From: Phycisphaerales bacterium UBA1910
GTDB taxonomy: Bacteria > Planctomycetota > Phycisphaerae > Phycisphaerales > UBA1924
Reading direction: 5' to 3'
NCBI GenBank assembly: GCA_002337545.1
Contig: DDGE01000043.1
Coordinates: 1-36,768 of the forward strand
Length of the DNA stretch: 36,768 bases
The notes below the pieces were generated by a model. That model saw only the letters and a list, made by a program, of their open reading frames with translations, was not told the DNA's origin and ran no database searches. Positions 2,181 through 30,653 of this stretch are shown piece after piece (position 1 is the stretch's first letter; each line of letters starts with the position of its first letter). The position numbers and the translations under genes were made by a program.

Positions 2181-2684
2181 TCAAGGCGGGGCGTTGGCGT
2201 TGGGGTGGCTCGGGGTTGTGTGTTGATCGTGATATTCTGAAGGTGGGGAAGCGTTTTGTTGTGTGGTTGGTGCTGGGTCTGGTACACGCTGAGGTGTTGC
2301 GGGGTTCGGTTCGTCCTGGTCGGGATCCGGGCCTGGGTTTGGGTTTGGGTCTGGTGGGGGTTGGTCCTGGGGTTCGGTGGTGGACTTGGTGAGCTGGCGG
2401 TCGAGGTGGGCCGCGGCTTTGCGGATGGTTTCGGTGTGGGCCGGGGAAGTTGGCTCGGTGAGGGCGATGCGTTCGAGGACCTGTGCGAGGCGGGCGCGGG
2501 TGAAGGATTCGCGTGCCTGCTGGATAGCGCGGATCATCTCGGCGAGGCGTGTGAAGGCGGGGGAGGTGATGATGTCGTGGAGCTCGTCGATGGTGAGCGC
2601 GTAGCGGGTGCAGAGCTCGATGACGGAGATGGGCTCGGCGATGAGGTCGTGCAGGAGCTCGTTGGTGATCTGTGCGTGAGTCAT
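2181..2684 (-). CDS. Small HTH-like protein with proline-rich tail
   Basis: 167 residues from an ATG at 2684; no clear Shine-Dalgarno site was seen. Residues about 5-95 are predicted helical and include a segment that could be a helix-turn-helix (ISVIELCTRYALTIDELHDI) followed by a long helical stretch with many Arg and Ala residues. The remaining 70 residues are Pro/Asp/Asn/Gln-rich (PDPNPNPGPDPDQDEPNP) and likely disordered. The shape is reminiscent of small DNA-binding proteins such as terminase small subunits, but there is no specific match that I recognise. It stands alone between repeat fields. The tail is encoded by a strand whose complement has a run of GGG-TTT units (see 2335-2360). 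Confidence 0.6.
   Translation of the reverse strand: MTHAQITNELLHDLIAEPISVIELCTRYALTIDELHDIITSPAFTRLAEMIRAIQQARESFTRARLAQVLERIALTEPTSPAHTETIRKAAAHLDRQLTKSTTEPQDQPPPDPNPNPGPDPDQDEPNPATPQRVPDPAPTTQQNASPPSEYHDQHTTPSHPNANAPP
2335..2360 (+). other. G-quadruplex-forming motif inside a coding region
   Basis: On the plus strand, three GGG blocks separated by TTT (GGGTTTGGGTTTGGG) are followed by a GGGGG block six bases later, fitting the G3+ N1-7 pattern. It is the complement of the Pro-Asn/Asp repeat region of the minus-strand gene at 2181-2684. Confidence 0.6.
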
Positions 2685-2778
2685 GTCGTGAATGTACGGC
2701 GGTGGCAGCGGGGATCAAGGGGGAATGGGCGCATGTACAGAAAGCTGCGCACAGATCGTGAGATGCGGGTGAGATTTT

Positions 2779-3043: not shown

Positions 3044-3079
3044 GGCGCACAAACCCGGTCACTGCGCGCGAAGTTTTTT

Positions 3080-26115: not shown

Positions 26116-27006
26116 CTAACCGATCGAGCGGATGACGGACACCCCCGCGTAGAGCCCCGCGATCTCCTCACGAGGTACGGTGGTTGGCGGGTAGGCGTTG
26201 TTGATCGGCTGGATCCGGATCAGCTCGTCGCCGACCTCGTTGGTTTCGAAATACACCCGTTTGAAGGTACTCTGGGCGTCGCGTTCGAAACGAACGAAGC
26301 AGTCCGCGCCGGATTCGATCGCCTTTGCGGGGGAGAAGACAACGATGTCGCCTTCCTGATAGTTCGGGTGCATCGAATCCCCCACCACTCGCGCGGCGAA
26401 CGCGTCGGGATCGCTCAGATCCGGCGTGCGGATGTACTCGTCGGCGACGCGCGCCGGGTAGTCCAGATCCGTGAAGTCCGCGGGATACCCAGCGGTGACC
26501 TTGTTGATCAGGGGCACCTGGTTCCCGAGCCGGACACGCCGGGTATCGGTGTCGGTGTTTGAGTTGTCGACCCCCTCCGGATCTACCCGATCGATCGCGC
26601 GTTTGAGGACGCCGCTGGCGAACAGATCGTCGAGCGATGTCCCCGCTTTGGCGCTCTGTGTGAGGAGCCTGGCGAGTTGCTTGGCGTTCCGGTCCTGCTC
26701 CTGCATGAACTGATAATCCGCGCGGATCGGTCCGGGGGTCTGTTCCCAGTGTGCGAGCCCCAGCAGCGTCCCCGGGTCCGCATCAAGCACGGATTCCAAG
26801 CTGGTGATCAATGCCTCCGTCGGGTGGCTCCGCTTCCCGCACTCGATGGCCGAGAGATACGACGGGGTGCACCCCACACAGGTGGCGAGATCCGCCAGCG
26901 AGACACCCCGGCGACGACGCAACTCGCGGAGTTGATCACCGAAAGGCGTCGCGGATTCCGGGTTTCTCATGCCTATCTCACGATCTGTGCGCTGTTTTGT
27001 TGACAT
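26116..27006 (-). CDS. CI/LexA-type phage repressor: HTH plus self-cleaving S24 peptidase
   Basis: 296 residues from the ATG at 27006, with TATAGT five bases upstream (leaderless, like lambda cI). Residues 23-80 are an HTH_3/XRE domain (QLRELRRRRGVSLADLATCVGCTPSYLSAIECGKRSHP). Residues 165-290 are an S24 peptidase with all functional parts: cleavage site Ala172-Gly173 in KVTAGYP, nucleophile Ser211 in GDSMHPNYQEGD, and base Lys249 in STFKRVYF. The spacings agree with LexA and CI. Such repressors cleave themselves when stimulated by RecA filaments, so the divergent operon should be SOS-inducible. It faces that operon over 84 bp containing an imperfect palindrome. Codon use is host-like. Confidence 0.92.
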   Translation of the reverse strand: MSTKQRTDREIGMRNPESATPFGDQLRELRRRRGVSLADLATCVGCTPSYLSAIECGKRSHPTEALITSLESVLDADPGTLLGLAHWEQTPGPIRADYQFMQEQDRNAKQLARLLTQSAKAGTSLDDLFASGVLKRAIDRVDPEGVDNSNTDTDTRRVRLGNQVPLINKVTAGYPADFTDLDYPARVADEYIRTPDLSDPDAFAARVVGDSMHPNYQEGDIVVFSPAKAIESGADCFVRFERDAQSTFKRVYFETNEVGDELIRIQPINNAYPPTTVPREEIAGLYAGVSVIRSIG

Positions 27007-27090
27007 ACCGTACTATACCCTAACACATATCCACTCAACAGTGTATACTCCCGAATATCAACCAAAAAGTGTATTGGACGGGAGATGATC
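27007..27090. promoter_or_regulatory. Divergent promoter/operator of the phage-like module
   Basis: An imperfect palindrome ATATCCACT-CAAC-AGTGTATAC (27027-27048) overlaps the plus-strand -10-like TATACT (27044-27049). A third AGTGTAT half-site is at 27069-27075. The minus strand has TTGAGT (27033-27038), 15 nt, then TATAGT (27012-27017) before the repressor ATG. The plus-strand gene has GGGAG (27080-27084) six bases before a GTG at 27091, which decides its start. Confidence 0.6.
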
Positions 27091-27576
27091 GTGAGTAGGA
27101 CACACGACGCTGGGGTATGGATTGATGGGTTGGACCAGACGCTGGATCTGAGACGGAAGCAGAGCCGATCGCTGAGCACCCGGGTCATCAGGCGGGCCCA
27201 TTGGCTCGATCCGTACGATCGAGAAATTGCGCTCGCGTACTTCGATCGTGGGATGAAGGGTGCGGATATTGGGGCGCTGCTGAATATCGACCCCAGGCAT
27301 GTTCGCAAGCGGATCAAACAGATCGTGCTGCTGCTGGAGGACCCCCGCTGCGCGTATGTTGTGGCCCACCGCAACGCGTGGAGCAGTCGCAGACGGATGA
27401 TCGCCGAGGACCTGTTCGTGAAGGGACGGTCGATGCGTGAGGTGAGCGAATCGCGTGGGATCTCGCTGCACGCCGTTCGCAAACACCGTGATGCGATCGA
27501 TGCGATGGCGTCCGCGAGTCTGGAACAGGGGCGTCCTTCACGCAGCTGGCAGCACGCCGAGCGGGATCGGTCATGA
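27091..27576 (+). CDS. Double helix-turn-helix regulatory protein of the phage-like module
   Basis: 161 residues. GTG 27091 is preferred over ATG 27085 because GGGAG lies at the right distance. Two HTH-like segments can be seen: REIALAYFDRGMKGADIGALLNIDPRHVRKRIKQI (about 41-75) and AEDLFVKGRSMREVSESRGISLHAVRKHRDAI (about 102-133). The second resembles sigma-70 region 4 or transposase/terminase-small-subunit HTHs. The C-terminus is Arg/Ser/His-rich. It is the first gene of the operon controlled by the CI-like repressor and overlaps the next gene by 4 bp. It may be a late activator or a packaging-site DNA-binding subunit; the choice between these cannot be made from sequence. Confidence 0.78.
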   Translation: MSRTHDAGVWIDGLDQTLDLRRKQSRSLSTRVIRRAHWLDPYDREIALAYFDRGMKGADIGALLNIDPRHVRKRIKQIVLLLEDPRCAYVVAHRNAWSSRRRMIAEDLFVKGRSMREVSESRGISLHAVRKHRDAIDAMASASLEQGRPSRSWQHAERDRS

Positions 27577-28967
27577 GCAGTGCCCGGCGCATTTCACCGG
27601 CATCGCTTATTCATGTCCCGTCGGCGCCGGAGGTCTCCGAGGCGCTCTCGCACGCGTGCGCCGGGTTCGGTGTGCTCCCCGCAACCCGCGCGAGTGTGCC
27701 TGCCCGGCACACGCGCCCATCAGGCTCGTTGCTGGAGCAGATCCGACCGGGGAGCGTGAGTCTGATCGTTGGGGCATCGGGAACAGGAAAATCCTCGCTG
27801 ATGCGTGGGCTGCGGGCATCGCTGAGGCATGATCGTGTGCGTGTTGTGCCGGAATCGCTGAGCGCATCGCAGCTGCGGCGGGCCAGCTTCGATCTTCTGG
27901 ATGGAGAGATGATCGATCGGGCCCAATCGCTCTCGCGCGCCGGGCTTGCGGAGCCGAAGCTCTGGGCGCTGCCGGCCGGATCGCTCTCGGTGGGCGAGCG
28001 GGCGCGATTGCGTCTCGCGATGACGATGCACGGATCTCGCCCCGGCGACATCGTCCTCGCGGATGAACTCGCTTCCACCATCGATCGAGCGAGCGCGTAC
28101 GCGTTGTGCAGGACGATCACACGCTGGGCGCAGCAGCGGAAGATCGCGTTCGTTGGCGCAAGCGCGCACGAGGATCTGGAATCGATGCTTGCGCCCGATC
28201 GTGTCTTTGAAGCGTGCACGGGCACCCTGCGCCCCGCGCGAGCGCGGCGTGCGCAGCCCGTACGGATCGAAACCGGCACCGCCAGGGATTATCACGCACT
28301 GGGGCACCTGCATTACCGATCGGGTGCGCCCGCGACGATCGTCCGAGTGTTGCGGGCGATGCGTGAAGTCCCGGTGTGCGTCGATCCCCGCGGCGAGATG
28401 CTCGCAGGTGTGCTGGTGGTCTCGATGCCGACGCTCAACAGCGCATGGCGTGATCGGGCGTGGGCCGGGTTCTTTCGCACGGGTGACAAACGCCGGGATG
28501 CCCGGAGACTCAACGCGTGCATCCGCACCATCTCGCGGGTGATCGTTGAACCCCGGAGCAGGGGCCTTGGCATCTCAACCCGGCTTGTTCGCGCATACCT
28601 GCGCAACCCGCTCACCCCAGGCACGGAAGCGAGCGCGGCGATGGGTGGCGTATGCCCATTCTTTGAGCTGGCCGGCATGACGCGCTATGTGCTCGGTCCC
28701 GACATGGGCGATACTCGATTGCTTGATGCGCTCTCGCACCTGCGCATCGCGCCGGCACAGCTCGCACAGATTACGATCGAACCCGGGTCGTTGTTGATGC
28801 GGGAGATGATCACCTGGGGGAAGCATCGCAAACTCCTCCCGTCCGGGTCGGTCTCCAGAGATGAAGTTCAGCGGCTCACCCCCTCTGCCGCATGTCGTTT
28901 GTGCTCGCGCCCCCGCGCCTACGCGTTCACGAAAGGTGAGCGGAGAGATGACGAGTTCGAGACATGA
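27573..28967 (+). CDS. ABC-type ATPase fused to GNAT acetyltransferase domain (COG2401-like)
   Basis: 464 residues, starting in an ATGA overlap. Residues 55-225 are a complete ABC ATPase: Walker A GASGTGKSS (67-75), signature LSVGE (138-142), Walker B DIVLADE (159-165) and the switch His199; no membrane segments. Residues about 230-395 form a GNAT acetyltransferase-like domain with the acetyl-CoA loop Arg328-Ser-Arg-Gly-Leu-Gly333 (VEPRSRGLGISTRLVRAYL) and a following LAGMTRYVLGPD strand-helix. A protein class with this fusion is known (COG2401). Phage Mu Mom, which modifies adenine in DNA, also has a GNAT fold, so a DNA- or base-directed acyl transfer is conceivable. In this operon it precedes a terminase. 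Function is not established; the domains themselves are clear. Confidence 0.85.
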   Translation: MSSARRISPASLIHVPSAPEVSEALSHACAGFGVLPATRASVPARHTRPSGSLLEQIRPGSVSLIVGASGTGKSSLMRGLRASLRHDRVRVVPESLSASQLRRASFDLLDGEMIDRAQSLSRAGLAEPKLWALPAGSLSVGERARLRLAMTMHGSRPGDIVLADELASTIDRASAYALCRTITRWAQQRKIAFVGASAHEDLESMLAPDRVFEACTGTLRPARARRAQPVRIETGTARDYHALGHLHYRSGAPATIVRVLRAMREVPVCVDPRGEMLAGVLVVSMPTLNSAWRDRAWAGFFRTGDKRRDARRLNACIRTISRVIVEPRSRGLGISTRLVRAYLRNPLTPGTEASAAMGGVCPFFELAGMTRYVLGPDMGDTRLLDALSHLRIAPAQLAQITIEPGSLLMREMITWGKHRKLLPSGSVSRDEVQRLTPSAACRLCSRPRAYAFTKGERRDDEFET

Positions 28968-29163
28968 CGCGTTGCCCAAACCCAGAACAGAACCACACAG
29001 CGGCACGCTTCCCAGCGCGCTGACTTTCTTTGTCTCGCGCGCGCAACGCGCCGCGATACTGCGCACATTGAAGCAGCTCAGCGACGATCGATCTCGGGCG
29101 CTGCTGATCGCGCTCGGCGAGATCGAGCCCGGGCATCCTGACGGATGGGGGGTGGAATCGTGA
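28948..29163 (+). CDS. 71-residue protein between the ABC-GNAT and terminase genes
   Basis: The ATG at 28948 is chosen because AAAGGTGA lies eight bases upstream; it overlaps the ABC-GNAT gene by 20 bp and the terminase gene by 4 bp (GTGA). No family recognised. A Pro/Ser/His-rich N-terminus is followed by a helical C-terminal part (SALTFFVSRAQRAAILRTLKQLSDDRSRALLIALGEIEP), which could bind the terminase or another partner. The position just before the large subunit is where small terminase subunits often lie, but the size and lack of an obvious HTH argue against a typical one. Confidence 0.65.
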   Translation: MTSSRHDALPKPRTEPHSGTLPSALTFFVSRAQRAAILRTLKQLSDDRSRALLIALGEIEPGHPDGWGVES

Positions 29164-30653
29164 GCGATGATCGGATGCAACTCCCGTTGGTGCGGAAGCC
29201 GGAGACTGAGGACGATCTGCACGCGTGGCTGGTCGAGCACCTCTCGGTGATGGTGGTGCGCGAACCCATTGTCGATGGGCACAGCGCACCGTTCGAGTAC
29301 CTGTGTCACGCGTTCTTCGAGGACCGTTCGCCGCGTGATTGTGTTGTCTGGGCGAACCGGGGCGGCGGGAAGACCTTCTACGCCGCCGTGGCGACGCTCC
29401 TGGATATGGTGTTCAAGCCCGGGATTGAGATCCGGATCCTCGGCGGGTCGCTCGAGCAGAGCAAACACATGCACGCCCACCTGCGCCGGTTGTTCGCGAT
29501 CGAGCCCTTCGACCAGCTGATCGAGGGACGCATCACGGAACGGCGGATCCGGTTGACGAACGGGTCGAGCGTGGAGCTGCTGGCCCAGTCGCAGACTTCT
29601 GTGCGTGGGACGCGCGTTCAGAAGCTGCGTTGCGATGAGCTCGAGCTGTTCGATCGCGAGGTCTGGGAAGCGGCCCAGCTCACGACGCGCGAGCTGCGTG
29701 TTGGAGATGGGCGGATCCGCGGGAGCATCGAGTGCTTCTCGACCATGCATGTGCCGTATGGGCTCATGCACGAGCTGATCGAGCAGAGCCACGACGAGAC
29801 GACGCCCCGGCGGGTGTTCAAGTGGGGCGTCGTGGATGTGCTCGATGCGTGCGACGAAGCGCACGCGTGCATCTCGGACGATGGGGCGTGCCCGCTCGCA
29901 CCCGAATGCTGCGGGGTCGCCAAGACCCGCATGCGCACGCCGGGCTCGCCCGGCGAGGTCCCGGGGCATATCGGGATCGATGATGCCATCGCGCTCAAGC
30001 AACGGGTGGGCGAAAACACATGGAACGCGGAAATGCTGTGTATCCGTCCGCAGCGGAGCGATTGCGTCCTGCCGGAGTTCGACGATCGCACGCATGTTGT
30101 TGATGCGATCCCGGAGGCGGCGCGATCGGGTATTCGGGTGGCGGGGATGGACTTTGGGATCCGCTCGCCGACGGTGGTACTGTTTGCCCATGTGGAGCCC
30201 GGGGGTGTGCTCTGGATCGTCGATGAGCATGTTCGCAGCGACGCCGCGCTCGACGAGCACATCGGGGTGATCCGATCGCATCGGTCATCACCCGCGTGGA
30301 TCGGGGTGGACCCGGCTGGTCGTCAGCGTGGGATCCAGACCGGAATCTCTGATATCCAGGCGATGCGGCGGGCCGGGCTGGTCGTGAAGGATCGCAAACT
30401 CGGGTTGCACGAGGGGCTGAAACTCATCCGCACTCGGCTCAAGCCCGCGGCGGTTGGGCCAAGGCTGTACATCCATCGCTCGTGCGAGCGGCTCATCGAT
30501 TCGATGCGGAAGTACCACTATCCCAAGGACCAGCCCTACACGGACTCGCCTGAGAAGGACGGGCACGATCACTGCGTGGACGCGCTGCGATACCTGATCC
30601 AGAACCTGGATATGGGTTATACGAGCGTTGAGGAGCGGTACATCGCTGGCTGA
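29160..30653 (+). CDS. Phage terminase large subunit (ATPase plus nuclease)
   Basis: 497 residues from GTG 29160 (GGGGGTGG upstream, stop-start overlap GTGA); ATG 29145 is an alternative. ATPase part: Walker A WANRGGGKT (64-72), Walker B LRCDE (Asp159-Glu160). Nuclease part (RNase H-like): Asp331 in VAGMDFG, Asp384 in WIGVDPAG and Asp474 in GHDHCVDALRYL, the three acidic residues expected for TerL. A Cys cluster (ACISDDGACPLAPECCG, about 235-255) may bind zinc. Terminases cut concatemeric DNA and drive it into procapsids. All key residues are intact, so the gene is under selection, yet portal, protease and capsid genes are absent downstream: the next genes are unrelated minus-strand membrane proteins. 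Confidence 0.9.
   Translation: MSDDRMQLPLVRKPETEDDLHAWLVEHLSVMVVREPIVDGHSAPFEYLCHAFFEDRSPRDCVVWANRGGGKTFYAAVATLLDMVFKPGIEIRILGGSLEQSKHMHAHLRRLFAIEPFDQLIEGRITERRIRLTNGSSVELLAQSQTSVRGTRVQKLRCDELELFDREVWEAAQLTTRELRVGDGRIRGSIECFSTMHVPYGLMHELIEQSHDETTPRRVFKWGVVDVLDACDEAHACISDDGACPLAPECCGVAKTRMRTPGSPGEVPGHIGIDDAIALKQRVGENTWNAEMLCIRPQRSDCVLPEFDDRTHVVDAIPEAARSGIRVAGMDFGIRSPTVVLFAHVEPGGVLWIVDEHVRSDAALDEHIGVIRSHRSSPAWIGVDPAGRQRGIQTGISDIQAMRRAGLVVKDRKLGLHEGLKLIRTRLKPAAVGPRLYIHRSCERLIDSMRKYHYPKDQPYTDSPEKDGHDHCVDALRYLIQNLDMGYTSVEERYIAG

What the first reader, a model, noticed from the sequence alone, without database searches (positions are those of the whole stretch)
26116..30653. Compact SOS-controlled terminase module without virion genes
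A self-cleaving CI-like repressor (Ala172-Gly173, Ser211, Lys249 all present) faces an operon of four genes that all overlap: double-HTH protein, ABC ATPase-GNAT, 71-residue protein and an intact terminase large subunit. No portal, capsid, tail, lysis or integrase gene follows, and codon use is host-like, so it is not simply a recent prophage. The preserved catalytic residues mean it is under selection. It could be a phage satellite or gene-transfer remnant, a domesticated DNA-processing system, or a defence or DNA-modification system triggered by DNA damage. I judge this the best candidate for a new system here.
Basis: partly seen in the sequence, partly recalled or inferred. Interest (0 to 1): 0.9.

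Follow-up and report, generated by a model that had tools for sequence, protein, structure and literature searches.

The report
Dispersed gene-transfer-agent packaging locus
This bacterium keeps a phage-type DNA-packaging gene set, with a repressor that has the self-cleavage residues, at one chromosomal place and a matching portal and capsid operon at another; both are inherited together across related families, so they likely make virus-like particles that would carry the host's own DNA between cells, a gene-transfer agent of a kind that my literature searches did not find reported from this group of bacteria.

Summary
"Without virion genes" fails genome-wide: an SPP1-type portal, scaffold-like protein, SU10-type major capsid and two tail-fold proteins lie on another contig of the same genome. 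Among 151 relatives, terminase and capsid co-occur (both 99, neither 30). Trees of the terminase and the unlinked portal each follow the host groups with the fewest possible changes; dN/dS is below 1 for every gene tested. In one genome of the same class the repressor, packaging, portal, capsid and tail genes form one 17-kb run, so the set was probably contiguous first. In the window's genus the small gene that adjoins the terminase in other families (a small-terminase candidate) has become a dispersed family: 11 copies in this genome, one of them in the window. One motif (ATCTCACGATCTGTGCGC) lies upstream of the terminase operon, the portal-capsid operon, an ATPase operon and the 11 copies. 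Best reading: packaging and control locus of an unreported gene-transfer agent. Particles, DNA transfer and damage induction are untested. In some relatives an 11-kb element with a recombinase and its own capsid gene interrupts the agent's capsid gene at one site.

The parts
26116..27006 (-). CI/LexA-like repressor with S24 peptidase domain; likely true start M13 (to 26970)
   Evidence: Pfam; catalytic residues
26966..27005 (+). promoter-type motif of the regulon, pointing toward HTH...TerL
   Evidence: row 1 of alignment A6; model R1 match 26967-27000, E 2.6e-6, a training row; exact core 26975-26992
27085..27576 (+). double-HTH protein, sigma-70 region-4-like; proposed activator
   Evidence: homologue in 27 of 29 relative loci
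27573..28967 (+). ABC-type ATPase fused to GNAT domain (two separate genes in other families)
28948..29163 (+). 71-aa protein, matches the C-terminal end of the ParB-like protein of other families
   Evidence: BLASTP E 3e-4 and 3e-3; ParB_N and PHROG 723 for the full-length protein
29145..30653 (+). large terminase subunit (GTG start possible at 29160)
2181..2684 (-). dispersed small-terminase-like gene, one of 11 copies in this genome
   Evidence: profile E 1.6e-4 in the second round, 0.035 in the first; A4 search E 2e-24 at 2409-2693, A4 contains this row; hhalign of the two families
2734..2773 (-). same motif upstream of the small-terminase-like gene
3045..3062 (-). second motif copy further upstream (GTGACCGGGTTTGTGCGC)

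Best explanation
The locus is the packaging and control operon of a phage-derived gene set whose portal, capsid and tail-fold genes lie at another place in the genome and are inherited with it, and it likely works as a gene-transfer agent that would pack the host's own DNA into particles. Shown by calls: intact terminase, repressor, portal and SU10-type capsid genes; co-occurrence; inheritance along host groups; purifying selection; one motif at the terminase operon, the portal-capsid operon and the dispersed small-terminase-like genes. Inferred: the repressor cleaves itself on DNA damage and frees the operon; the sigma-region-4-like HTH protein activates the motif-bearing promoters; the dispersed small proteins lead the large terminase to many chromosomal start sites; the ATPase-GNAT protein modifies or prepares DNA; the holin-like and lipoprotein genes of the head operon release the particles. 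Untested: particles, their DNA content, delivery.
For: Portal PF05133 in 46 of 61 relatives (43 over cut-off), own genome included; SU10 capsid 4e-88, scaffold-like 2e-4 and portal 1e-17 in one own-genome operon; capsid in 107 of 151. TerL and capsid both 99, TerL only 14, capsid only 8, neither 30, p 5e-14, genomes not independent. TerL and portal trees of 35 genomes: 5 label changes each, the least possible. dN/dS 0.05-0.52. Tail-tube and baseplate folds. One contiguous cluster in G158. Phages with the same packaging run followed by a portal. Shared motif. Small-terminase-like family related to the TerL-adjacent gene.
Against: No particle, transcript or DNA evidence. No long-tail, receptor-binding or endolysin gene was identified in the own genome; tail genes of other families were sought in only three stretches of it. 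Small-terminase identity rests on weak profile similarity. Drafts blur presence and absence, but some fairly complete genomes have TerL without a capsid hit (G030, G099, G110, G111) and some TerL matches hold a stop (G020, G032, G058, G087, G099, G116), so decay occurs. The motif is missing at 5 of 6 copies in G011. Some placements inside family f1 differ between the two trees and several forks are open. No host-marker tree was built.
Confidence: 0.75

Rival explanations
1. A domesticated DNA-processing or defence module: terminase, ATPase-GNAT and repressor act on cellular DNA without any particle.
For: TerL stands without virion neighbours in the window; GNAT-ATPase-ParB runs in phages may modify DNA (the Mom-like idea is recalled, not tested).
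Against: Portal and capsid co-occur with it, share the motif, and form one cluster with it in G158. PADLOC gives no match for HTH, p71 or TerL, and only generic ATPase and control-protein matches for the others.
Confidence: 0.1
2. Remnants or members of ordinary prophages, acquired several times.
For: All core genes have phage relatives; one relative has a contiguous phage-like cluster; some copies carry stops.
Against: Usually one copy per genome, trees along host groups, dN/dS well below 1, dispersal over contigs. An integrase was not searched genome-wide.
Confidence: 0.1
3. A phage satellite that packages itself with a helper phage.
For: Dispersed small-terminase-like genes with a shared motif resemble packaging redirection.
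Against: Inheritance along host groups and host flanks; satellites known to me (recalled) are mobile and do not need their own portal and capsid at a second site. The element that does look like a satellite is another one, inside the capsid gene.
Confidence: 0.04

Closest known systems
RcGTA and relatives (Rhodogtaviriformidae), with activator GafA
   Same: Phage-derived, several loci, vertical inheritance; a dedicated activator with HTH and sigma-like parts binds the structural, lysis and own promoters (PMC6363796, passages; PMC9662315, passages).
   Different: Here SU10-type capsid and not HK97-type PF05065, a CI/LexA-type repressor, an ATPase-GNAT-ParB run, and a multi-copy dispersed small-terminase-like family. 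GafA and the HTH protein were not compared by sequence.
BhGTA (VSH-1) of Brachyspira and BaGTA of Bartonella
   Same: Independently domesticated; the BhGTA 'genome' is likely dispersed over several loci (PMC9662315, passages).
   Different: No gene-level comparison was made here.
Packaging cassette of SSU5-like phages, Pseudomonas phage nickie, Rhizobium phage RHph_N1_10, Stenotrophomonas phage BUCTxx99
   Same: ParB-like, ABC ATPase (36-41% identity in the rows seen), GNAT-type protein (22-31%), DNA-binding or unnamed gene, TerL.
   Different: In the phages the run leads straight into the portal, and no CI-type gene lies beside it in the four regions read; here it ends at TerL and faces a CI-type repressor.
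Capsid-forming phage-inducible islands (for the 11-kb element only)
   Same: Recombinase plus its own capsid gene and no terminase or portal found by Pfam in the six L135 proteins scanned.
   Different: It sits inside a gene-transfer-agent capsid gene; literature seen as a listing only.

Membership tests
Gene transfer agent (viriform definition, PMC9662315 section 3, passage read) | caudoviricete-derived proteins forming particles | tested here: inconclusive
   proteins met: TerL, portal, SU10 capsid, tail folds; particles not testable
Gene transfer agent (viriform definition) | mostly random host DNA packaged | not testable with these tools
   needs sequencing of protected DNA
Gene transfer agent (viriform definition) | genome fully endogenised, often at several loci | tested here: met
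   TerL on C28, head operon on C60; in one-contig genomes tens of kb apart, e.g. G086 about 66 kb, G121 about 40 kb, G128 about 64 kb
Gene transfer agent (viriform definition) | own genome not fully packaged | tested here: inconclusive
   dispersal suggests it, but head capacity is unknown
Gene transfer agent (viriform definition) | mostly vertical inheritance with the host | tested here: met
   TerL and portal trees along host groups, 5 of least 5 changes, 35 genomes; no host-marker tree
Gene transfer agent (viriform definition) | packaged DNA delivered to recipients (sentence cut in the passage seen) | not testable with these tools
   needs a transfer assay
Temperate prophage | contiguous, integrase-bearing, horizontally moving element | tested here: not met
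   dispersed and inherited along host groups in the window's relatives; no integrase in the 20 kb around TerL was looked for by profile, so this rests on dispersal and trees; G158 is contiguous
Known anti-phage defence system (PADLOC models) | core genes match a described system | tested here: not met
   only generic HTH, control-protein and ATPase similarities; none for HTH protein, p71 or TerL

The most novel reading that the evidence does not exclude
A class-wide gene-transfer agent of a new lineage in which this genus turned the small terminase into a dispersed gene family, each copy with the shared motif: every copy marks and serves its own chromosomal packaging start, so particles load chosen genome regions and the copies spread because they get packaged. 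Capsid-carrying satellites parasitise the agent by inserting at one fixed site in its capsid gene.
Probability: 0.3. Interest if true: 0.95.

Novelty: new variant of a known kind. Interest (0 to 1): 0.85.

Why it matters
Few gene-transfer agents are known, and each independent origin tests why hosts keep them. This one would be spread over families of a whole class, uses a different capsid type, has a repressor with intact LexA/CI cleavage residues (so damage control is directly testable), and has a dispersed small-terminase-like family that could show how packaging starts are chosen. The element inside the capsid gene, if it is a satellite, would be independent evidence that the particles move DNA.

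Tried and rejected
HK97 capsid PF05065 as the missing capsid: 6 of 61 relatives, not in the own genome. Defence reading: see rivals. Free phages of the same kind: TerL matches 189 deposited phage records, none covering 80% of the query, 22-30% identity in the 25 rows listed; GNAT 6 records; ATPase 48 records. IMG/VR scans, which use conserved peptide patterns, gave 6 TerL loci (three at 30-38% identity on 4-5 kb contigs) and 8 GNAT loci. Tail genes of other families (390, about 700, 550 aa) gave no match in three own-genome stretches. Genes after the new motif sites on C9, C44 and C35 did not look phage-like by eye; no profile search was run on them. The core KTGTGCGC alone is not enriched in the window (7 hits, mean 4.45 in shuffles); the longer context carries the signal. 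Motif pairs in G103, another family, have a different inner sequence and may be an unrelated repeat. No shared attachment repeat beyond 8-10 bp was found at the capsid-gene junctions. Solved structures: TerL profile best matches terminase 5oe8, E 2e-8, nuclease part; the third match is to a TAL effector at E 0.0055, taken as chance; the repressor matches HTH domains only.

Literature, PubMed Central library only: searches (gene transfer agent or prophage terminase with Planctomycetes, Planctomycetota, Phycisphaera or Phycisphaerae) showed no title or abstract on such an agent in this group; one search listed 12 of 22 papers, and a text hit was not followed into any of them. Searches were on gene-transfer agents in general, 97 on satellites. 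Passages were read of PMC6363796, PMC9632790, PMC9662315 and PMC11841831; all other papers were seen as listings. My note says 15 of 20 loci; the recount is 14 of 20.
Full report
Observation. The repressor has Ala172-Gly173, Ser211 and Lys249, identical in the window and 18 homologues. TerL keeps its ATPase and nuclease residues. No virion gene adjoins the module here, and third-position GC lies in the range of six flanking genes.

Conservation. ABC-GNAT matches 111 of 151 genomes, own included, some weakly; TerL 114 of 151, one (G115) weak. In 29 relative loci, those of the best of the 111, TerL and ABC-GNAT were found in 29, the 71-aa gene in 28, HTH in 27, CI in 26; these loci are about 4 kb, and in G011 the CI gene lies a few kb further off. 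In more distant families the ATPase and GNAT are separate genes, and a full ParB-like gene and a ~150-aa gene stand before TerL. The window's 71-aa protein matches the end of that ParB-like protein (E 3e-4 and 3e-3). Over the class the TerL profile matches 129 of 198 genomes; 26 of these are weak (best E above 1e-25) and may be other terminases. In 20 class loci that I chose from the strong matches, ATPase and GNAT lie near TerL in 14, CI within the stretch in 4, portal and capsid in 1.

Phage source. The run ParB-like, ABC ATPase, GNAT-type, DNA-binding or unnamed gene, TerL, portal occurs in Pseudomonas phage nickie, Rhizobium phage RHph_N1_10, Stenotrophomonas phage BUCTxx99 and Klebsiella phage pJN2-26. 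The cassette is thus phage-derived; here it stops at TerL.

Inheritance and selection. Trees of TerL and portal for 35 genomes each need 5 changes of host-group label, the least possible for six groups; 0 of 200 shuffles were as low. Some placements within family f1 differ and several forks are open. dN/dS against up to three relatives: capsid 0.05-0.11, portal 0.13-0.17, TerL 0.16-0.22, CI 0.19-0.24, ABC-GNAT 0.27-0.32, 71-aa 0.23-0.43, HTH 0.27-0.52, three further head-operon genes 0.21-0.24 (one relative). dS is often near or above 1, so the ratios are rough. Against a perfect set: several TerL matches hold a stop, and G099 keeps only the start of its capsid gene.

The regulon. Aligning the regions upstream of the two operons showed a common TGTGCGC core. 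TTTGTGCGCA occurs 27 times in the own genome against 8 for the reversed control, and in pairs exactly 114 bp apart at four loci: the portal operon, an AAA_25 ATPase-DUF6378 operon and two small genes. The pair pattern gave 34 matches against 2 control matches in 37 genomes; palindromic sites count on both strands, and 5 of the 34 are in G103, with a different inner sequence. The small genes are related to the ~150-aa gene beside TerL in other families (profile E 6e-4 to 2e-3 among 14,938 ORFs; hhalign probability 95.6, E 1e-8). The own genome has 11 copies, one in the window; 16 of 17 genus members have at least one and 0 of 10 genomes of other families. A [CT]TGTGCGC core on either strand lies within 600 bp upstream in 11 of 11 own copies and in 21 of 29 copies tested in four genomes (G010 8 of 10, the two others with upstream cut at 390 and 16 bp; G011 1 of 6; G015 1 of 2), against 6.9% of random windows. 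Six of the own copies (C5, C10, C36, C62, C68, C69) were first met through the motif, so the fair test is the five found by protein similarity: 5 of 5. A 40-bp alignment of 22 sites, 12 from this genome, includes the TerL operon at 26966-27005 and the portal operon; a model of it found the sites again and new ones on C9, C44 and C35, whose next genes do not look phage-like.

Mechanism. My reading: damage or stress likely inactivates the repressor; the operon yields the sigma-region-4-like HTH protein, which would act at the motif promoters much as GafA acts at the RcGTA, lysis and its own promoters (PMC6363796, passages); portal, scaffold and capsid assemble; small-terminase-like proteins bring TerL to many sites; DNA is packed by headful and cells lyse. 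Gene content, conservation and motif sharing are shown; the rest is inference. [quoted passage not shown]

Membership. Of the six features of the published definition (PMC9662315, passages), two are met here (several endogenised loci; vertical inheritance), the first is met for proteins but not testable for particles, one is inconclusive, and two need experiments. So it is a strong candidate, not a filed member.

Alongside. In some relatives the agent's capsid gene is interrupted. In L133, L134, L136 and L137 the first piece ends at residue 66; in L134, L135 and L136 the second begins at 63; inserts measure about 10.6 to 11.5 kb, and L137 is rearranged. In L135 the insert encodes a serine recombinase, a HARE-HTH protein, an AAA_25 protein, its own phage capsid protein and a sigma-region-2 protein. 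It looks like a satellite that uses the agent's capsid gene as its integration site.

Noticed in passing
L133, L134, L135 (3619-12107), L136, L137, L147: An element of about 11 kb with serine recombinase, AAA_25 protein, sigma-like protein and its own phage capsid gene interrupts the SU10-type capsid gene of the agent at residues 63-66 in several genera; possibly a satellite of the agent.
   Followed up: partly
window 2409-2693 (-) and 10 further copies in G000: Small-terminase-like genes form a dispersed family in the window's genus, each own copy with the shared motif upstream.
   Followed up: partly
G000:C9:19919, C44:9262, C35:74627 (L314, L312, L313): Further sites of the 40-bp motif (E 7e-8, 2e-7, 8.5e-5) before genes that do not look phage-like.
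   Followed up: partly
L197 6921-8811 (G000:C24): Motif pair upstream of an AAA_25 ATPase and a DUF6378 protein; the ATPase also follows the pair in G002 and G018. A role in the agent is unknown.
   Followed up: partly
L196 7636-10453 (G000:C10): SIR2-like protein followed by a HerA-type helicase, a pair typical of defence (recalled), next to one small-terminase-like copy.
   Followed up: no
L051 9634-11703: TerL of G071 is 689 aa, with an extra stretch between the ATPase and nuclease parts.
   Followed up: no
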